Positions 40,695 through 50,541 of a DNA stretch of 64,000 nt are shown here, piece after piece. The notes beneath the pieces were generated by a model. It was not told the DNA's origin, ran no database searches, and saw only the letters and a program-made list of their open reading frames with translations. The stretch covers positions 496,001 through 560,000 of the forward strand of contig NZ_JAUSVX010000002.1 of assembly GCF_030814995.1 (NCBI RefSeq), written 5' to 3'. Source of the DNA: Labrys wisconsinensis (GTDB taxonomy: Bacteria; Pseudomonadota; Alphaproteobacteria; Rhizobiales; Labraceae). The position numbers and the translations under genes are program-made. Each line of letters begins with the position of its first letter. Position 1 is the stretch's first letter.

Positions 40695-41495
40695 TCACGC
40701 CGCCACCTCGATCCCGGCCGGCCTCGGCATCCTGGCGAACAGCCGGAAGGCGTTGGCCGTGGTGATGCGGGCGATCTCGGCCTCGTCGACACCGATGGTC
40801 TCGGCCAGGACGCGGGCGGTGTTGACCACGTAGGCCGGCTCGTTGCGCTTGCCGCGCCAGGGCGCGGGCGCGAGATAGGGCGCGTCCGTCTCCACCAGCA
40901 GCCGCTCGGGCGGGATCTCGCGCGCGATCTCGCGCAGCTCCTCGGACTTCTTGAAGGTGAGGATGCCGGAAAAGGAGACGTAGAGGCCGAGCGCCACGCC
41001 GCGCCGGGCGAGCCCGGCGCCGGAGGAGAAGCAATGCAGGACGGCCGTGAAGGCCCCCTGCCCCATCTCGTCCTCGAGGATGTCGGCCACGTCCTCGTCC
41101 GCCTCGCGGGCGTGGATCACCAGCGGCAGGCCGGTGCGGCGCGCCGCGGCGATGTGCCGGCGGAAGCCGCGCGCCTGCACGTCGCGCGGGCTCTTGTCGT
41201 AGTGATAGTCGAGCCCCGCCTCGCCGATCGCCACGACCTTGGGATGGGCGGCCAGCGCCAGGATCTCGTCGAGGGTGACGTCGTCCTCCTCCGCCGCATG
41301 ATGGCAATGGGTGCCGACCGAGCCGTAGACGTCGTCATAGCGCTCGACCAGGGCACGGATCTGGTGGAAGCGGCGCACGCGCGTCGAGATGGTGATCATA
41401 CGGCCGATGCCGGCGGCACGGGCGCGCGCCACCACGGCGTCGACCTCCGGCGCGAAATCCGGAAAGTCGAGATGGCAATGGCTGTCGATCAGCAT
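40695..41495 (-). CDS. tatD: TatD-family deoxyribonuclease
   Basis: 266-residue TIM-barrel metal hydrolase acting as a 3'-5' DNase. Start at ATG 41495 (GAGG 8 bases upstream); the longer frame to 41555 would overlap metG. Metal motif SHCHLDFPDF at the N-terminus, then GEAGLDYHYD, VIHAREADEDV, and the C-terminal LLVETDAPYLAPAPWRGKRN. Found directly behind metG, an arrangement also known from Gram-positive bacteria and alphaproteobacteria. Despite its name it is not linked to the Tat export genes at 15683-17228. Confidence 0.94.
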   Translation of the reverse strand: MLIDSHCHLDFPDFAPEVDAVVARARAAGIGRMITISTRVRRFHQIRALVERYDDVYGSVGTHCHHAAEEDDVTLDEILALAAHPKVVAIGEAGLDYHYDKSPRDVQARGFRRHIAAARRTGLPLVIHAREADEDVADILEDEMGQGAFTAVLHCFSSGAGLARRGVALGLYVSFSGILTFKKSEELREIAREIPPERLLVETDAPYLAPAPWRGKRNEPAYVVNTARVLAETIGVDEAEIARITTANAFRLFARMPRPAGIEVAA

Positions 41496-41529
41496 GGCGC
41501 CGGCCTCGCAGCGGCGGAACCCGTCCGTG

Positions 41530-43083
41530 TCATGCCGGCTCCGCGGCCTCGACATAGCGCGGGAACACGCCCTTGGGCTCCGGCAGCTCGACGTCCGGCG
41601 ACAGCCGGCCCTCGGCGCCGAGATGGCTGAAGTCGCGCGCGTCCTCGGGCACGGCGAGGAGGTCGAGCAGCGCCGCGGCGGCCGTCGGCGTCACCGGCTG
41701 GGCCAGGATGGCGATCTGGCGCACCACCTCGATGGTGACGTAGAGCACCGTCTCCATGCGGGCCGGGTCGGTCTTCTTCAGCTTCCAGGGCTCCTCGGCG
41801 GCGAAATAGCGGTTGGCCTCGGCCACGACCGCCCACATGTCGGCGAGCATGGTGTGCAGCGCGAACTGGAACATGGCGTCGCGCGCCTTCCAGACGAGGG
41901 CGTCCGCGGCGGCCAGGAGCTCGGCGTCGGAGGGCAGCAGGTCGCCCGGGCTCGGGATCCGGCCATCGCAGTTCTTGGCGATCATCGACAGCGAGCGCTG
42001 GGCCAGGTTGCCGAGGTCGTTGGCCAGATCGGCATTGGTGCGGTTGACGATCGCCTCGTGCGAATAGTTGCCGTCCTGTCCGAACGGCACCTCGCGCAGG
42101 AAGAAATAGCGCAGCTGGTCGACCCCGTAGTGCTCGGCGAGCGTGAAGGGGTCGATGACGTTGCCGACCGACTTCGACATCTTCTCGCCGCGGTTGAACA
42201 GGAAGCCGTGGCCGAAGACGCGGCGCGGCAGCGGCAGGCCGGCCGACATCAGGAAGGCCGGCCAGTACACGGCGTGGAAGCGCACGATGTCCTTGCCGAT
42301 GATGTGGACATTGGCCGGCCAGAACCTGGCGCGTTCGGCGTTCTCGTCGGGAAAGCCGGTGGCGGTGAGGTAGTTGGTCAGCGCGTCGACCCAGACATAC
42401 ATCACATGCTTGGGCGCGCCCGGGACCGGGATGCCCCAGTCGAACGTGGTGCGGCTCATCGACAGGTCGCGCAGGCCCGACTTGACGAAGCTGACGATCT
42501 CGTTGCGCCGCTCCGCCGGCCCGATGAAGTCGGGATGGGCCTCGTAATGGGCGAGCAGCCGGTCGGCGAACTGGCCCAGGCGGAAGAAATAGCTCTCCTC
42601 CTCCACCCATTCCACCGGCGTGCCGGTCGGGGCGCGGCGCGAGCCGTCCTCGAGCACGGTCAGCTCCGTCTCGTCGTAATAGGCCTCGTCCCGCACCGAG
42701 TACCAGCCGGAATAGGTGGAGAGATAGATGTCCCCGGCCGCGACCATGCGCTCCCAGATCGCCTTGGACGCCTCGTGGTGGCGCGGCTCGGTGGTGCGGA
42801 TGAAGTCGTCGTTGGAGGCGTTGAGCGCCGTGGCCATGGCGCGGAACACTTCCGAATTGCGGTCCGCCAGCTCGCTGGCGGTCAGGCCTTCCTTGGCCGC
42901 CGTCTGCAGCATCTTCTGGCCGTGCTCGTCGGTGCCGGTGAGGAAGAACACGTCGTAGCCGTCCAGCCGGCGGAACCGGGCGATGGCGTCGGTGGCGATC
43001 AGCTCATAGGCATGGCCGATATGCGGGCGGCCGTTGGGGTAGGAGATCGCCGTGGTGATGAAATAGGTGTCTTGCTCGGACAT
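41530..43083 (-). CDS. metG: Methionyl-tRNA synthetase
   Basis: Class I synthetase, 517 residues, the short alphaproteobacterial type. HIGH motif in [17 protein letters not shown] in [11 protein letters not shown], and the [15 protein letters not shown] segment. Only one cysteine was seen (AKNCDGRI), so the zinc-knuckle found in E. coli-type enzymes is absent and the connective peptide must fold without zinc. The C-terminal tRNA-binding (EMAP-like) extension is also missing. It lies 24 bases after the holB stop. Confidence 0.96.
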
Positions 43084-43107: not shown

Positions 43108-44148
43108 TCAGGATCGTGACGCCCGAGCGAGCATGGAGAACGTGGAGAGGACGAACGGCTTGCGCTCGAGGTTGTAGACCTCCACGTCGCGTGCCGCATC
43201 GCGGGCTTTGTCCCATACCTCCGCCCAGCGTGCAAGGCGATGGGCCGGCGCGCCCTGCTCGACCGTCAGGCGCTCGTGCAGCCAGTCCTCCAGAAAGGCC
43301 AGCATCAGCTCGAAATTGGCGTCCCCGGCCTTGCCGGCGCAGCGGTCGGCGAGGGCGTGCACGGCGGCGACGTCGATGTCGGGCAGGCGCGCCAGCAGCG
43401 CCAGCAGCGCCTGGTGCAGCGCCACCCCCTCCCCCTCCGCCAGCACCAGCGTCCGGCGCACGCTGCCCTGGGCGATGCGCGCCGCGCCCTCCAGCGCCGG
43501 GCGCGGCAGGTCGGGCCGCGCCAGCGCCGCCGCCCGCACCGTGTCGTCCGCGCTCAACGCTTCCAACGTCAGCCGGCGGCAGCGCGAGCGGATGGTCGGC
43601 AGCAGCCGGCCGGGCTGGTGGGAGACGATCAGGAACAGGGCGCGGGCCGGCGGCTCCTCCAGCACCTTCAGCAAGGCGTTGGCGCCTGCGGCGTTGAAGT
43701 CGTCGGCGGCGTCGACGATGGCGATGCGCCAGCCCCCGCCTCCGGCCGTGGAGCCGAAGAAGGCGACGGCCTGCCTGACATCCTCGACCTTGATCACCGC
43801 ACCGAAGCTCTTGCGATCGTCGTTGAGGGTGCGGCGCAGCACCTTGAGGTCGACATGGGACTGGGAGGCGACCTGCCGCGCCGCCGGCACCTGCGGCGGC
43901 ACGGCGAGGTCGGTGCAATCCTGCGTCGTCGTCGGATCGGGATGGGTGAGGACGAACTTGGCCATGCGGTAGGCGAGCGTCGCCTTGCCGATGCCTTCCG
44001 GGCCGCCGAGGATCCAGGCATGGTGGATGCGGCCCGAGCGGTAGGCCTCGAGCAGTGCCCGCTCGGCCGCGTCGTGCCCGATCAGGGCGGCGGTCTCGCG
44101 CGGATGCGGCGTATCGTCGAGGCGGTCGATTTCGGGCGTGTCGCTCAA
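43108..44148 (-). CDS. holB: DNA polymerase III delta-prime subunit
   Basis: Clamp-loader subunit, 346 residues. AAA+ P-loop GGPEGIGKATLAYR, Walker B-like IVDAADDFN, NALLKVLEEPP and the SRC finger in RSRCRRLTLEA. The start is a TTG at 44148 with GAGG 9 bases upstream; no ATG/GTG is nearer that keeps the HPRETAALIGHDAAE segment. It follows tmk with 12 bases between; tmk-holB linkage is widespread in bacteria and supports the assignment. Confidence 0.94.
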   Translation of the reverse strand: MSDTPEIDRLDDTPHPRETAALIGHDAAERALLEAYRSGRIHHAWILGGPEGIGKATLAYRMAKFVLTHPDPTTTQDCTDLAVPPQVPAARQVASQSHVDLKVLRRTLNDDRKSFGAVIKVEDVRQAVAFFGSTAGGGGWRIAIVDAADDFNAAGANALLKVLEEPPARALFLIVSHQPGRLLPTIRSRCRRLTLEALSADDTVRAAALARPDLPRPALEGAARIAQGSVRRTLVLAEGEGVALHQALLALLARLPDIDVAAVHALADRCAGKAGDANFELMLAFLEDWLHERLTVEQGAPAHRLARWAEVWDKARDAARDVEVYNLERKPFVLSTFSMLARASRS

Positions 44149-44160
44149 CGCGGGCGATCC

Positions 44161-44841
44161 TCAGCTCGGCAGGGCCAGCCGCTCGGTTACGACACGCAGC
44201 ACCTCCCCCGCAACAGCCTCGACGTCGCGCGCGGCATCCACCACGGCGCAGCGCGCCGGTTCCGCCTCGGCGATGGCGAGGAAGGCCTGGCGCAGGCGCT
44301 CGTGAAACGCCAGCCCCTCGCTCTCGAAACGGTCGGCGGCCCCGCCGCGCGCCCTGGCACGCTTCAATCCCTCAACGGCTGGCAGGTCGAGGATCAGGGT
44401 GAGATCCGGCCTGGTGTCGGCGACGACGACGCGCTCCAGCGTTCGGATCATCTCCGGCGCGATGTTGCCGAGCACGCCCTGATAGGCTCTCGTCGAATCG
44501 ACGAAGCGGTCGCACAGCACCCATTGACCGCGCGCCAGCGCCGGCCGGATGGTCTGCGAGAGATGGTCGTCGCGCGCGGCGAAGAACAGCACCGTCTCGG
44601 CAAAGGGGCCATAGGGCTTGGCCCCGCCGGAGAGCAGCACCTCGCGCAGGGCCTCGGCGCCGGGAGAGCCACCCGGCTCGCGCGTCATCGCCAGCTCGAT
44701 GCCCCGCCCGCGCAGCGATTCGGCGAGGCGCCGGATCTGCGTCGACTTGCCGGCCCCCTCCCCGCCCTCGAAGGTGATGAAACGCCCGCGCGGCCCACCG
44801 TCCGCCCTCGCCTGCCCCGCGCTCACGCCAGCTCCCGTCAC
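44161..44841 (-). CDS. tmk: Thymidylate kinase
   Basis: Phosphorylates dTMP to dTDP. 226 residues. P-loop [18 protein letters not shown], the DR-x motif [13 protein letters not shown], and the LID region with [17 protein letters not shown]. The start is GTG at 44841, overlapping the stop of the dacC-like gene by 4 bases (GTGA), so its translation is probably coupled to the upstream gene. About 18 extra residues precede the P-loop. Confidence 0.95.
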
Positions 44842-46064
44842 GATCGTTCCGCCCGGCCGCGGACCAGCCCCACGCCGAATTCATAAAGCGCATCGAGCGC
44901 CCGTTTGCCCAGCCCGCCCACGGGGACGTCCGCGCCGGCCCTGACCGGGATCTCCAGCGCGACGATGCCTTCGCGCAGCACCTGCAGGCGCCCCACCGCA
45001 TCGCCGCGCCGCACCGGCGCGGGCAGCGGCCCATCATAGACGATGCGCGCCTGGAGCTGGTCCTTGCTGTCGGTGCGCACCGGCAGCCTTACCGGACCGT
45101 CGGCGACGAGCGGCACCGTCCAGCTGGTGCCCCCGAAGACGCTGGCCTCGCCGATGGTCTCGCCCGCGGCGAACATTTCCTTCGGCTCGAAGGACTTGAA
45201 GCCCCATTCGAGGATACGTGCCGCCTCGTCCGCCCGCTCCTTGACGCTCTTGAGCCCGTGCACGACCAGGACGAGGCGGCGGCCGTCGCGCATGGCCGAG
45301 GCGGCAAGGCCGAAGCCGGCGCTGTCGGAGGCGCCGGTGGCGCCGCCGTCCGTGCCGGCGACCGCCGTGAGCAGCGGGTTGCGGTTGAGCTGGCGGATCC
45401 GGTTCCAGGTGAATTCCTTCTCGCCGTAGACGGCGTAGATCTGCGGATGATGATCGACCAGATACTGCACCAGCACGGCAAGGTCCCGCGCGGTGGTGTG
45501 CTGGTCGGGATCGGCGAAGCCGGTGACGTTGCTGAAATGGGTGTGCGTCATGCCGATCGCGGCGGCGAGCGCGTTCATGCGCACGACGAACGCATCCTCG
45601 GAGCCGGCGATGCCCTCGGCCATGATCAGGCAGGCGTCGTTCGCCGCCTGCACCATGGCGCCGCGCAGGAGGTCGGCGACGCGGATCCGGCTTTTCAGCG
45701 CGGCGAACATGGTGGCGCTGCGCGAGGGCGCGCCGCCCTTGCGCCAGGCCTGCTCCGACACGGGATACTCGGTGTCGAGGCTGGTCTCGCCCTTGGCCAG
45801 GGCTTCGGCCACGACAGCCACGGTCATCATCTTGGCCATGGCCGCCGGCTCGACCGGCCGGTCGACGTTCCTGCCCAGCAGCAGCATGCCCGAGGAGGCA
45901 TCGAGCAGCAGCGCCACCGGGGCGCTGGTCTCGAACGGCTCGGCCCGCGCCGCGGAGGCCGCGACGAGCGCCAGACAGATCAGGACGAGTGTCCGAAACA
46001 CGATGCCGAGCCGCCGATCGAACGCACACAGCGAGAAATGGTCATTCCAAGTCCCGAATTCCAT
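44838..46064 (-). CDS. D-alanyl-D-alanine carboxypeptidase homolog without catalytic residues
   Basis: 408-residue PBP5/DacC-type protein (peptidase S11). A signal peptide ([16 protein letters not shown]) precedes the domain; GTG at 46001 is an alternative start. The fold is fully recognisable, with a C-terminal PBP5 beta domain (about 300-390) and terminal amphipathic helix. All three active-site motifs are changed: SxxK reads A75-M-A-K78, SxN reads A140-A-N142, and KTG reads A242-T-G244, each with alanine in place of the key Ser, Ser or Lys. The open frame is intact and of normal length. Transpeptidase/carboxypeptidase activity is not expected. First gene of the tmk-holB-metG-tatD-MBL run and coupled to tmk. 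Confidence 0.9.
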
Positions 46065-46182: not shown

Positions 46183-47352
46183 ATGGCCGACACCTCCACC
46201 ACTGCAATCCTGATCGTCGGGGCCGGGCCGGCGGGGCTCGCGACCGCCCTGACGCTGGCGGCGCGCGGCACGGCGGCGACGCTGGTCGGGCCGGCGGGCG
46301 ATCCCGGCGACACCCGCACCACTGCCCTTCTGGACGGCAGCGTCTCGGCGCTGCGGCAGGCCGGCGCCTGGGAGGCGGCGAGCACCCATGCCGCGCCGCT
46401 GCGGGTGATGGCGATCGTCGATGCCACGAGCCGGCTGATGCGGGCCCCGCCCGTCTCCTTCGCCGCCGCGGAGATCGGCCTCGACGCCTTCGGCTGGAAC
46501 ATCGCCAATGCTGATCTCGTCGCCGCGCTCGAGGCGACGGCGGCGGCCGAGCCGCGCATCGCGCGCGCGCGACAGCGCGTGGTCTCTGTCGCGATCGATG
46601 CGTCTGCGGTGCATCTGCGGCTCGAGGACGGCAGCGTGCTGAGCGGGGCGCTGGCGGTGGCGGCGGACGGCCGTCGCTCGCCGCTGCGCGAGGCTGCCGG
46701 CATCGCGGTCGCGCAATGGCGCTATCCCCAGGCGGCCCTCGCCCTCAATGTCGAGCACACCCGCCGGCATCGCGACGTCTCGACGGAGTTCCACACCGAG
46801 ACCGGTCCCTTCACCCTGGTGCCCCTGCCGGGCGATCGCTCGAGCCTGGTCTGGGTGATGGCCTCGGCCGAGGCGGAACGGCGTGCGGCGCTGACCGACG
46901 CGGCGCTGGCCGAGGAGATCGAGCGCCAGAGCCACTCCCTGCTCGGCAAGATCCGGATCGCCGGGCGGCGCTCGGTCTGGCCGATGGCGGGCCTGGCGGC
47001 GACGCGCCTCGCGGGCGAGCGCGTCGCGCTGGTCGGCGAGGCGGCGCATGTCTTCCCGCCGATCGGGGCCCAGGGCTTCAACCTGACGATGCGCGACATC
47101 GTCGCGCTGGCTGACGCCGCGGCCCATGCACCGGACCCGGGCGCGACCGAGGTGCTCGACGCCTATGCCGCGGCGCGGCGGCTGGACGTCGCCGCGCGCA
47201 CCGCCACCGTCGACCTGCTCAATCGCTCGCTGCTCTCCGGCTTCCTGCCGCTGCAGGGCGCGCGCGGGCTCGGCCTGCACCTGCTCGACCGCGTCGGGCC
47301 GCTGCGGCGCCTGGCGATGCGCCAGGGCCTCGCGACCCGCCTCGGTTCTTGA
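46183..47352 (+). CDS. UbiH/UbiF-family FAD-dependent monooxygenase
   Basis: 389-residue flavoprotein hydroxylase from the ATG at 46183. FAD motif ILIVGAGPAGLATALTLAA, an Arg-containing TRTTALLDGSV segment, AADGRRSPLREAAGI (DG motif), and the second FAD motif VGEAAHVFPPIGAQGFNL. This is the ubiquinone-ring hydroxylase family, and it likely acts in aerobic ubiquinone synthesis, though the exact ring position cannot be told. Divergent from the dacC-like gene with 118 bases between. An inverted repeat follows the stop. Confidence 0.88.
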   Translation: MADTSTTAILIVGAGPAGLATALTLAARGTAATLVGPAGDPGDTRTTALLDGSVSALRQAGAWEAASTHAAPLRVMAIVDATSRLMRAPPVSFAAAEIGLDAFGWNIANADLVAALEATAAAEPRIARARQRVVSVAIDASAVHLRLEDGSVLSGALAVAADGRRSPLREAAGIAVAQWRYPQAALALNVEHTRRHRDVSTEFHTETGPFTLVPLPGDRSSLVWVMASAEAERRAALTDAALAEEIERQSHSLLGKIRIAGRRSVWPMAGLAATRLAGERVALVGEAAHVFPPIGAQGFNLTMRDIVALADAAAHAPDPGATEVLDAYAAARRLDVAARTATVDLLNRSLLSGFLPLQGARGLGLHLLDRVGPLRRLAMRQGLATRLGS

Positions 47353-48820: not shown

Positions 48821-49465
48821 CTATTGCGCCGCCTTGTTGAGAGCGTCCTGGGCGGCCTTCTCGATCCGCTTGCGCACGTCCTCCTGCTGGTTCTGCACGG
48901 TCTTGGGGTCGACCGGCGCGCCGTCGAAGATCTTGCCGAAATCCTCCAGGCCGATCGGGAACACGACGCCGCGGCCCTGCACGTTGAGCAGTTGCAGGTT
49001 GAGCGTCTTGCCCTGCTTCATCATGCCGATCAGGGCGTCGGTCACGTCGGCCTCGACGTAGCAGGCGCTGGGAAGGCACACGGTGAACTTGCCCGGCACC
49101 GGCGGATTCTGGTCGACGACCACGCGCACGCCCGGCTGGATCTGCATGCCGGGCGGCACGGCGATCATCATCAGGCGCCTGCCGTTCCTCTCCTGGCGAA
49201 CCTCGACCGAGGCCAGGGTTTCGCCGGTCTCGGCGCGCAGGTCGCGCACGATCTGGCAGAACTCCTTCTTGGTCTGCGGGTCCGTGGCGCAGCTCTTGAT
49301 CCAGTCCGGCTGCAGGCCGGCGATCGCCGGCGCGGCGCTGCCCTGGCCGGCGGCGTCCGCGGCAGCGGGCTGGCCTGCGGCAGGGGCTGCCGGCTGCTGG
49401 GCGAGGGCCGGTGCGGCCATCAGCCCCAGGGTCGCGACGGCGGTCGCAAGGAGACGAAGCGACAT
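48821..49465 (-). CDS. Invasion-associated locus B (IalB) family protein, copy 1
   Basis: 214-residue exported protein: signal peptide LLATAVATLGLMAAPALA ending before QQPAAPAAGQ, an Ala/Pro-rich spacer, and the IalB domain (DWIKSCATDPQTKKEFCQI; VPPGMQIQPGVRVVVDQ; CLPSACYVEADV; LNVQGRGVVFPIGL). Four cysteines in the C-x(n)-C and C-x5-C positions likely make disulfides. The family occurs widely in rhizobia and Bartonella; only the Bartonella protein has a known invasion role. Paralogous to the next gene upstream (49625-50296), about 159 bases away on the same strand. Confidence 0.9.
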   Translation of the reverse strand: MSLRLLATAVATLGLMAAPALAQQPAAPAAGQPAAADAAGQGSAAPAIAGLQPDWIKSCATDPQTKKEFCQIVRDLRAETGETLASVEVRQERNGRRLMMIAVPPGMQIQPGVRVVVDQNPPVPGKFTVCLPSACYVEADVTDALIGMMKQGKTLNLQLLNVQGRGVVFPIGLEDFGKIFDGAPVDPKTVQNQQEDVRKRIEKAAQDALNKAAQ

Positions 49466-49624: not shown

Positions 49625-50296
49625 TTACTGCGCCGGGGGCTGGCCGGCGGCCTGCTGGGCCTTCTTGGCGGCTTCCTCGAGCTTCTTGCGCAGCTGCTCC
49701 TGCTCGTTCTGCACGACCTTGGGGTCGATCGGCGCGCCGTCGAGCGCCTTGCCGAAGCCCTTGAGGCCGATCGGGAACACCACGCCGCGGCCCTGCACGT
49801 TGAGCGCCTGCAGGTTGAGCGTCGTGCCCTTCTTCATCACGCCGATCAGGGCATCGGTCGCGTCGGTCTCTGCCAGGCAGACGTTGGGGAAGCAGACCGA
49901 GAACTTGCCGCCCACCGGCGGCTGCTGGTCGATGACCACGCGCACGCCCGGCTGGATCTGCATGCCCGGCGGGATGGCCATGATCAGGAGGCGCTTGCCC
50001 CCCTTGTCCTGGCGAATCGCCACGGAAGCGAGGGTCTGGCCGGTCTCGGCGCGCAGGTCGCGCGAGGTCTGGCAGAGCTCCTTCTTGCTCTGCGGATCGG
50101 TGGAGCAGAGCTTGACCCAGTCCGGCTGGGGACCGGAAATCGCCGGCGTGGCGTTGCCCTGGTCGGCATCCGCGGCGGCCTGATCGGCAGCCGGCGCGGC
50201 CGGCGCTGCGGGCTTGGCCGGCTGCTGCTGGGCGAAGGCCGGGGCAGCCATCAGCCCCAGGGCGGCGACGGTGGTCGCAAGAAGACGAAACGACAT
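49625..50296 (-). CDS. Invasion-associated locus B (IalB) family protein, copy 2
   Basis: 223 residues from the ATG at 50296 (the frame is open to 50368 but the signal peptide LLATTVAALGLMAAPAFA sets the start). Nearly colinear with copy 1: DWVKLCSTDPQSKKELCQ, IPPGMQIQPGVRVVIDQ, CFPNVCLAETDAT, LNVQGRGVVFPIGL. The linker is longer and richer in Ala/Asp/Gln, and the C-terminal helix ends in KAQQAAGQPPAQ. The pair comes from a tandem duplication: even the DNA around the starts (CGACATCGATCCA) is alike. Divergent from the SBP gene at 50542. Confidence 0.9.
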   Translation of the reverse strand: MSFRLLATTVAALGLMAAPAFAQQQPAKPAAPAAPAADQAAADADQGNATPAISGPQPDWVKLCSTDPQSKKELCQTSRDLRAETGQTLASVAIRQDKGGKRLLIMAIPPGMQIQPGVRVVIDQQPPVGGKFSVCFPNVCLAETDATDALIGVMKKGTTLNLQALNVQGRGVVFPIGLKGFGKALDGAPIDPKVVQNEQEQLRKKLEEAAKKAQQAAGQPPAQ

Positions 50297-50541
50297 CGAT
50301 CCAATCCTTGGGTCCGGGGGCGCGCCGGTCGACGGGCCGCCGGCGCTGTCAATCCTGGCTGCCCTCACTCCGCGCTAAAGATGGCGTGAGCGTGACGGCG
50401 TCGGCGGGCTGCATAGCTCAAGCGCGAACGGGTTTCCAGCGTCGTTTTGGCCCGCCGGACGGGTTTTCCAGACGCCGCCAGCGGCGGGAATCGCCGAAGA
50501 CGGCATGATACATTGATGCCGGCCGGTCCGAATCGCCGGTC

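What the first reader, a model, noticed from the sequence alone, without database searches (positions are those of the whole stretch)
44838..46064. DacC/PBP5 homolog with alanine at the key residue of all three active-site motifs
The S11 peptidase family needs Ser in SxxK, Ser in SxN and Lys in KTG. Here the DNA encodes A75-MAK, A140-AN and A242-TG (codons at 45840-45842, 45645-45647 and 45339-45341), while the rest of the 408-residue fold, the signal peptide and the C-terminal PBP5 domain look intact. Random decay would not be expected to change all three catalytic side chains to alanine and leave the frame open. It suggests a selected pseudoenzyme: a muropeptide or pentapeptide binder, a decoy for beta-lactams, or a scaffold. 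Its GTGA overlap with tmk could also keep the frame open through translational coupling.
Basis: partly seen in the sequence, partly recalled or inferred. Interest (0 to 1): 0.78.

Follow-up and report, generated by a model that had tools for sequence, protein, structure and literature searches.

The report
Dead cell-wall enzyme kept by selection
A cell-wall trimming enzyme (a PBP5-type carboxypeptidase) has lost its key catalytic residues in this bacterium, and relatives in the same bacterial order have lost them several separate times, yet the protein is kept nearly intact, which suggests that it has a second, non-enzymatic job.

Summary
Window 44838-46064(-) encodes an S11/PBP5 protein with Ala75, Ala140 and Ala242 in place of the catalytic Ser, Ser and Lys. 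It is not an oddity of one genome. All 5 held genomes of the genus (Labrys) lack all three residues. Of 174 genomes of the order (Hyphomicrobiales) whose ortholog I read, 63 lack at least one catalytic residue, in 13 of 46 families. Outside the order 99 of 100 are intact. The larger trees need 10-13 changes of state, at least 7-8 forced by well-supported branches. The altered genes are not simply decaying: dN/dS is 0.05-0.13 in 18 of 20 close pairs, the fold is predicted with pLDDT 93 and matches PBP5. The window genome keeps two intact S11 paralogs and no other PBP5_C protein. Best reading: a pseudoenzyme kept for a non-catalytic role, recruited repeatedly in this order. Which role (scaffold, partner of an active enzyme, peptide receptor) is not shown. 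A covalent beta-lactam decoy is unlikely because the nucleophile is gone. Ten literature searches listed no description of it.

The parts
44838..46064 (-). dac: PBP5-type S11 protein with no catalytic Ser, Ser or Lys (408 aa as called; 387 aa if it starts at GTG 45999-46001)
45840..45842 (-). codon GCC, Ala75 in place of the nucleophile Ser of SxxK (Lys78 kept at 45831-45833)
45645..45647 (-). codon GCG, Ala140 in place of Ser of SxN (Asn142 kept at 45639-45641)
45339..45341 (-). codon GCC, Ala242 in place of Lys of KTG (Thr243, Gly244 kept)
   Evidence: A/S/V in the genus
45999..46001 (-). alternative GTG start that fits where relatives start
   Evidence: inference
44844..44912 (-). C-terminal helix, residues 385-407, the likely membrane anchor as in PBP5
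   Evidence: AlphaFold2 model; best hydrophobic moment 0.58 against 0.41 +/- 0.12 for shuffles (weak); role inferred
44161..44841 (-). tmk, thymidylate kinase; its called GTG overlaps the dac stop (GTGA)
43108..44148 (-). holB, DNA polymerase III delta' subunit
41530..43083 (-). metG, methionyl-tRNA synthetase
40695..41555 (-). tatD-type DNase
46183..47352 (+). divergent FAD-binding monooxygenase-type gene (start approximate); most relatives read have rlpA upstream of dac instead

Best explanation
The gene encodes a pseudoenzyme: an exported, probably membrane-anchored PBP5 that cannot do D-Ala-D-Ala carboxypeptidase chemistry but is kept by selection for a non-catalytic job in the cell wall. 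Shown: the three catalytic side chains are absent; the same loss holds in all 5 held genomes of the genus, and loss has arisen repeatedly within Hyphomicrobiales; the rest of the protein is under purifying selection; the predicted fold is PBP5; intact S11 paralogs remain in the genome. Inferred: the cell moved the carboxypeptidase chemistry to the paralogs, which left this protein with a second function that PBP5 in this order already had. The mechanism I think most likely is a scaffold or allosteric partner. The two-domain body, held at the membrane by its C-terminal helix, would position or activate another wall enzyme (an intact S11 paralog, or the lytic transglycosylase RlpA encoded next to it in most relatives), much as degenerate Csd2 pairs with Csd1 in Helicobacter. 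That specific role I put at about 0.35; that it is a selected non-catalytic protein at about 0.85.
For: Loss of all three residues in 5 of 5 genus genomes. 63 of 174 order genomes read, in 13 of 46 families, altered, against 1 of 100 genomes (each of its own family) outside the order. 10 changes in a careful 100-row tree (8-10 over bootstraps, at least 7 forced, 0% of 200 bootstrap trees unite the altered rows); 13 changes, at least 8 forced, in a quick 255-row tree, with 14 all-altered clades; 8 changes, at least 6 forced, in the first quick tree of 158 rows. dN/dS 0.052-0.132 in 18 of 20 altered pairs with dS up to 0.7, against 0.025-0.299 in the 8 intact pairs with dS up to 0.7. Of 30 columns at least 97% conserved in 173 intact rows, altered rows lose most at K242 (5 of 82 keep it), S140 (9 of 81), T243 (53 of 82) and S75 (57 of 81); R263 (61 of 82), D239 (66 of 82) and R228 (68 of 82) also slip, and the other 23 stay at 93% or more, with R277 82 of 82. 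Only one PBP5_C gene and no S13 gene in the window genome; its two other S11 genes are intact. 22 of 22 S11 paralog loci read in 12 other altered genomes are intact, at least one per genome. AlphaFold2 pLDDT 93.2; the first 20 PDB matches are PBP5 and PBP6. rlpA upstream in 41 of 45 altered and 59 of 65 intact order loci with enough flank. A degenerate wall peptidase that forms a heterodimer with its active paralog has a precedent in Csd1-Csd2 (PMC5053510, passages).
Against: No biochemistry: inactivity and partner binding are inferred. In E. coli, dead PBP5(S44G) neither complements shape defects nor localises to the septum (PMC2909392, passages), which speaks against a non-catalytic role there. 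The altered proteins are less conserved than intact ones at the same tmk divergence in 5 of 6 bins (for example median identity 0.69 against 0.79 at tmk identity 0.75-0.80), and two f35 pairs reach dN/dS 0.34-0.37. Nine of the 45 order genomes searched gave no match at E 1e-50 (they were included because they had none at 1e-60), so the gene seems dispensable in some lineages. rlpA is not next to dac in Labrys (3 of 3 loci with enough flank; the window), which weakens a strict RlpA partnership.
Confidence: 0.65

Rival explanations
1. Non-turnover peptide receptor: the pocket still binds D-Ala-D-Ala-ended stem peptides without cutting them, and so marks, protects or senses pentapeptides.
For: In 33 altered rows of Rhizobiaceae-like and Aurantimonadaceae genomes, positions 140, 242 and 243 vary over 5, 5 and 7 residues, while S75, K78, N142, D143 and R277 are each kept 33 of 33, so part of the pocket is still constrained (for the 15 rows known only from the named scan, N142 and D143 were part of the search pattern). 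In 19 Labrys and Kaistia-type rows K78, N142 and R277 are kept 19 of 19. R277 aligns with a pocket Arg of PBP5 (Arg248; role and numbering recalled).
Against: Lys242 and Thr243, thought to bind the substrate carboxylate (recalled), are among the residues lost or drifting. E. coli PBP5(S44G) loses septal localisation, which its authors link to inability to bind substrate (PMC2909392, passages). The kept residues may only support the fold.
Confidence: 0.2
2. Slow decay: the enzyme became redundant, lost its residues by relaxed selection, and the frame survives only because an upstream frame is needed for coupled translation or transcription of tmk.
For: GTGA overlap with tmk in the window. 56 of 82 altered genes overlap or abut tmk by projected distance. 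Somewhat lower conservation than intact orthologs. Intact paralogs provide redundancy.
Against: dN/dS 0.05-0.13 in 18 of 20 close altered pairs, in the range of tmk for most of the same pairs. 22 of 82 altered genes lie more than 20 nt from tmk. 23 of 30 conserved columns stay at 93% or more. Outside the order, where 54 of 59 tmk genes found overlap or abut, 99 of 100 are intact. The gene persists in a 1.5-Mb genome (G164).
Confidence: 0.12
3. Changed enzyme: the protein has gained another activity that does not need the S11 residues.
For: In many altered rows Ser75 (57 of 81) and Lys78 (76 of 81) are kept, so a nucleophile with its base remains there.
Against: In Labrys and Kaistia-type rows the Ser is Ala in 19 of 19, leaving no S11 nucleophile. 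New conserved polar residues were not looked for systematically.
Confidence: 0.06
4. Beta-lactam decoy: the protein soaks up beta-lactams in the periplasm.
For: Soil bacteria meet beta-lactams (recalled), and the fold is that of a penicillin-binding protein.
Against: Without the Ser nucleophile there is no covalent trapping; E. coli S44G abolishes in vitro penicillin binding (PMC2909392, passages). It remains possible only for lineages that keep Ser75.
Confidence: 0.03

Closest known systems
PBP5 / DacA of E. coli and PBP5 of P. aeruginosa (Peptidase family S11)
   Same: Two-domain architecture with PBP5_C, predicted fold (Foldseek ranks 1-20 are PBP5 or PBP6 chains, TM by target length 0.81-0.88), hydrophobic N-terminus, C-terminal helix
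   Different: No catalytic Ser, Ser or Lys; scores far below the NCBIfam cut-offs for the DacD and DacA equivalogs (220.7 against 610 and 207.9 against 694 bits)
Intact tmk-linked PBP5 orthologs in Hyphomicrobiales and other Alphaproteobacteria
   Same: Upstream of tmk (same strand in 107 of 111 intact order rows and 59 of 62 of the first outside set), usually after rlpA in the order; 41-52% identity among the intact ones that one search lists
   Different: They keep S..K, S.N and K[TS]G (111 of 174 order genomes, 99 of 100 outside)
Csd2 of Helicobacter pylori, a degenerate LytM peptidase that heterodimerises with active Csd1 (PMC5053510, passages)
   Same: A wall-peptidase homolog without a working catalytic site, kept beside an active paralog
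   Different: Different fold (metallopeptidase); a partner is proven there, only proposed here
PBP5(S44G) of E. coli, laboratory mutant (PMC2909392, passages)
   Same: A PBP5 without its nucleophile
   Different: It does not complement and is mislocalised in E. coli, whereas the natural versions here are conserved

Membership tests
Active S11 D-Ala-D-Ala carboxypeptidase (DacA/PBP5) | Ser nucleophile of SxxK | tested here: not met
   Ala75; A in 5 of 5 genus genomes
Active S11 D-Ala-D-Ala carboxypeptidase (DacA/PBP5) | Lys of SxxK | tested here: met
   Lys78
Active S11 D-Ala-D-Ala carboxypeptidase (DacA/PBP5) | Ser of SxN (its Asn142 is kept) | tested here: not met
   Ala140
Active S11 D-Ala-D-Ala carboxypeptidase (DacA/PBP5) | Lys of KTG | tested here: not met
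   Ala242
Active S11 D-Ala-D-Ala carboxypeptidase (DacA/PBP5) | NCBIfam equivalog cut-off for DacD or DacA | tested here: not met
   220.7 against 610 and 207.9 against 694 bits; no intact ortholog was scored for comparison
Active S11 D-Ala-D-Ala carboxypeptidase (DacA/PBP5) | Carboxypeptidase activity and penicillin binding | not testable with these tools
   needs purified protein
PBP5 fold and family by descent | Peptidase_S11 plus PBP5_C domains | tested here: met
PBP5 fold and family by descent | PBP5 three-dimensional fold | tested here: met
   model pLDDT 93.2; Foldseek 4k91, 6ntz, 1nzo, 3it9
PBP5 fold and family by descent | Signal peptide and C-terminal amphipathic anchor | tested here: inconclusive
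   hydrophobic N-terminal stretch and predicted helix 385-407; no dedicated predictor was run, and the hydrophobic moment is only about 1.4 SD above shuffles
Pseudoenzyme | Homolog of an enzyme with catalytic residues missing | tested here: met
Pseudoenzyme | Protein-level purifying selection after the loss | tested here: met
   dN/dS 0.057-0.086 within three Labrys pairs
Pseudoenzyme | Demonstrated non-catalytic function | not testable with these tools
   needs genetics and pull-downs

The most novel reading that the evidence does not exclude
In Hyphomicrobiales, an order known for polar growth and for its own LD-transpeptidases, the tmk-linked PBP5 has a second, non-catalytic function that matters more than its chemistry. 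Once paralogs carry the chemistry, its active site is dismantled again and again (at least 7-8 changes of state forced by well-supported branches, by different residue routes, one of them removing the SxxK Lys and SxN Asn instead), which makes these proteins a natural series of separation-of-function mutants of PBP5. If the unspecified 'dac' that is synthetically lethal with loss of the order-specific LD-transpeptidases in Agrobacterium is this gene, the genetic interaction would be that of a pseudoenzyme.
Probability: 0.35. Interest if true: 0.85.

Novelty: new variant of a known kind. Interest (0 to 1): 0.72.

Why it matters
PBP5 is the textbook housekeeping carboxypeptidase, and as far as I know (recalled) no non-enzymatic role is established for it. 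A recurrent loss of its catalytic residues, almost confined to one order in this sample and with the protein kept, says that such a role may exist and gives many natural proteins in which to study it, including an intact/altered sister pair (L069 and L068). It also warns that genes annotated 'DacC' or 'D-alanyl-D-alanine carboxypeptidase' in these bacteria may have no such activity, which changes how their wall metabolism and genetic screens are read.

Tried and rejected
Rejected: sequencing error (same residues missing in 5 genomes); one founder event (0% of 200 bootstrap trees); a second PBP5_C protein elsewhere in the window genome (none); loss of rlpA linkage as the cause (rlpA upstream in 41 of 45 altered loci with enough flank); an S13 carboxypeptidase as substitute (none in the window genome).

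Led nowhere: which locus 'dac' is in the Agrobacterium screen (section 9 and the passages I saw of PMC11527210 give no locus tag; supplements are not readable here); PMC4045076 is not held; passages of PMC8546619 and PMC6107284 do not mention this gene; ten literature searches listed no paper that I recognised, from titles and starts of abstracts, as describing the phenomenon.

Limits of the counts. The 174 order genomes are those I read; 397 were sampled (351 and 353 with a match) and further genomes of family f16 came. They were mostly best-ranked hits of two queries that are themselves altered proteins, plus the Kaistia family searched on purpose and a set from under-sampled families, so 63 of 174 is not an unbiased prevalence; families are the fairer unit, and many genera have one genome only. 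Nineteen rows known only from the named scan, which was pattern-selected for altered motifs, are left out of 63 of 174 but are in the trees and. Rows dropped before counting: L281 and L282 (truncated) and L387 (truncated, outside the order). L071/L104 is a fragment without the first two motifs and counts as altered on its third motif only. Outside the order tmk was found beside dac in 59 of 62 and 32 of 39 loci, so orthology of the rest rests on similarity. A long-branch artefact may join Labrys with families f11, f13, f25 and f42 in the 255-row tree; the number of losses is a range. The dN/dS pairs (27 altered, 15 intact) were chosen by me, share members, and for distant pairs are saturated; two tmk values (dN above 2) are frame artefacts. 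tmk distances are projected from tblastn hits.

Full report
Observation. The neighbouring motif residues Lys78, Asn142, Thr243 and Gly244 are in place. Pfam assigns Peptidase_S11 and PBP5_C. The downstream genes are tmk, holB, metG and tatD on the same strand, and upstream lies a divergent FAD-binding monooxygenase-type gene. The start is uncertain by about 21 residues.

The genus. The window genome lies in a genus of five held genomes; three of the others match named Labrys assemblies at this locus. Each of the five has one ortholog, the other four at 57-60% identity to the window protein, and all five lack the Ser, Ser and Lys: AMAK, AAN and ATG, STG or VTG. So positions 75 and 140 are fixed as Ala in these five, and 242 varies.

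The order and beyond. I read the ortholog in 174 genomes of the order: 111 intact (S..K, S.N, K[TS]G) and 63 with at least one of these residues changed. The changed ones fall in 13 of 46 families and 27 of 104 genera, and in 26 of those 27 genera every genome read is changed, though many genera have one genome. The sample leans towards altered proteins (see Tried and rejected). Named examples, from a separate scan selected by motif, are Kaistia and Prosthecomicrobium (AMAK or AMVK, AGN, STG), Bosea (SMAK, AGN, QTG), Aureimonas and Aurantimonas (SLAK, AAN, mostly GTG), and Rhizobium sp. CFBP 8762 (SLAK, AAN, AMG). Four genomes coded f35 took another route: they lost the Lys of SxxK and the Asn of SxN but kept Ser, Ser and Lys. 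Outside the order I read the ortholog with full motifs in 100 genomes, each of its own family: 62 of 62 intact in the first set and 37 of 38 in the second, the exception being a 0.9-Mb genome with SGG and no tmk in the stretch read. By family, 13 of 46 against 1 of 100 gives Fisher p 9e-7, which ignores kinship between families.

Repeated loss. With the catalytic columns removed, a careful tree of 100 rows needs 10 changes between intact and altered (8-10 over bootstraps; at least 7 forced by starred branches; 0% of 200 bootstrap trees put the altered rows on one side). A quick tree of 255 rows needs 13, at least 8 forced, with 14 all-altered clades; the first quick tree of 158 rows needed 8, at least 6 forced. 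These counts allow regain, so they are not strictly losses, but the rows outside the order used for rooting are intact. The three rows with a single change (L061 TTG, L125 ETG, L147 MTG) have lost only the Lys of KTG, which suggests that this residue tends to go first. L068 (AGN, ITG) and L069 (intact) are sister rows.

Selection. Of 27 altered pairs compared, the 20 with dS up to 0.7 have dN/dS 0.052-0.132 in 18 and 0.34-0.37 in the two f35 pairs; the 8 intact pairs (of 15) with dS up to 0.7 have 0.025-0.299 (Nei-Gojobori, pairwise, so rough). At equal tmk divergence the altered proteins are less conserved in 5 of 6 bins, a mild relaxation. Of 30 columns at least 97% conserved in 173 intact rows, altered rows give up mainly positions 242, 140, 243 and 75, slip to 74-83% at R263, D239 and R228, and stay at 93% or more in the other 23; Gly111, Asp143, Asn179, Gly182, Gly240, Gly270 and Arg277 are kept in every altered row that can be read there. 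In 33 altered rows of the Rhizobiaceae-like and Aurantimonadaceae groups, positions 140, 242 and 243 vary over 5, 5 and 7 residues, while Ser75, Lys78, Asn142 and Arg277 are kept 33 of 33 (in the 15 of these rows that come from the named scan alone, Asn142 and often Ala140 were part of the search pattern). There has thus been time to drift, and the rest of the pocket is still held.

Structure. AlphaFold2 with 80 aligned sequences gives pLDDT 93.2 with a C-terminal helix at 385-407. Foldseek ranks PBP5 and PBP6 chains first (4k91, 6ntz, 3ita, 3it9, 1nzo). Rank 23 is an integrative model of a DacA with a partner, YxkC (9a4z), a reminder that such proteins can have partners.

What else the cell has. 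The window genome has three S11 genes: this one and two intact paralogs. It has one PBP5_C domain, in this gene, and no S13 gene; other carboxypeptidase families were not searched. In 12 altered genomes from other lineages, 30 of 44 S11 matches became readable loci: 8 are altered tmk-linked orthologs, and 22 of 22 others are intact, at least one per genome. So the loss looks specific to this ortholog. rlpA lies upstream in 41 of 45 altered and 59 of 65 intact order loci with enough flank; the four altered loci without it are three Labrys and Prosthecomicrobium. The window genome has RlpA-type (DPBB) genes elsewhere.

How it may work. Established knowledge: S11 enzymes need the SxxK Ser as nucleophile, and E. 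coli PBP5 with Ser44 replaced has no penicillin binding, no carboxypeptidase activity, no complementation and little septal localisation (PMC2909392, passages). So the window protein should be dead as a carboxypeptidase and unable to trap beta-lactams covalently (inference). What selection keeps is the exported two-domain body. I judge a scaffold or allosteric partner most likely, by analogy with Csd2 (PMC5053510, passages), and a non-cutting peptide receptor next. In Agrobacterium, 'the DD-carboxypeptidase dac' is synthetically essential with the order-specific LD-transpeptidases (PMC11527210, section 9 and passages). Whether that dac is this gene is not stated in what I saw. Sinorhizobium has four annotated genes of this kind, one called dac (PMC7327166, passages). 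These are leads, not evidence.

Novelty. Ten searches of the open-access library, judged from their listings, showed no paper that describes this; subscription journals are mostly not held, so it may be described elsewhere. I class it as a new variant of a known kind: a pseudoenzyme form of PBP5, recurrent in one order.

Noticed in passing
window 48821-49465(-) and 49625-50368(-): Two neighbouring paralogs with an IalB domain (PF06776, E 3e-27 and 2e-30) lie a few genes from dac; an IalB-domain protein, RgsG, is among the polar growth factors of Sinorhizobium (PMC7327166, passages).
   Followed up: partly
L157, L158, L172, L182 (genomes coded f35): PBP5 orthologs that keep both Ser and the KTG Lys but have lost the SxxK Lys (SMAT) and the SxN Asn (SGG or SGT): a complementary route to a dead active site.
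   Followed up: partly
L207 (genome G164, 1.5 Mb): A small genome keeps an altered ortholog (NGN, GFG) upstream of tmk plus two intact S11 paralogs; a fast-evolving row.
   Followed up: no
L068 and L069 (genomes G306 and G019): Sister rows of one genus, one altered (AGN, ITG) and one intact: a recent loss and a good experimental pair.
   Followed up: no
genomes coded f18, f46 and f4: Seven of seven genomes searched from these families (chosen because they had no match) gave no PBP5 match at E 1e-50, so the gene may be lost altogether there.
   Followed up: no
L384 (genome G472, 0.9 Mb, outside the order): The only altered one of 100 outside the order: SGG in place of SGN, no tmk in the stretch read.
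   Followed up: no
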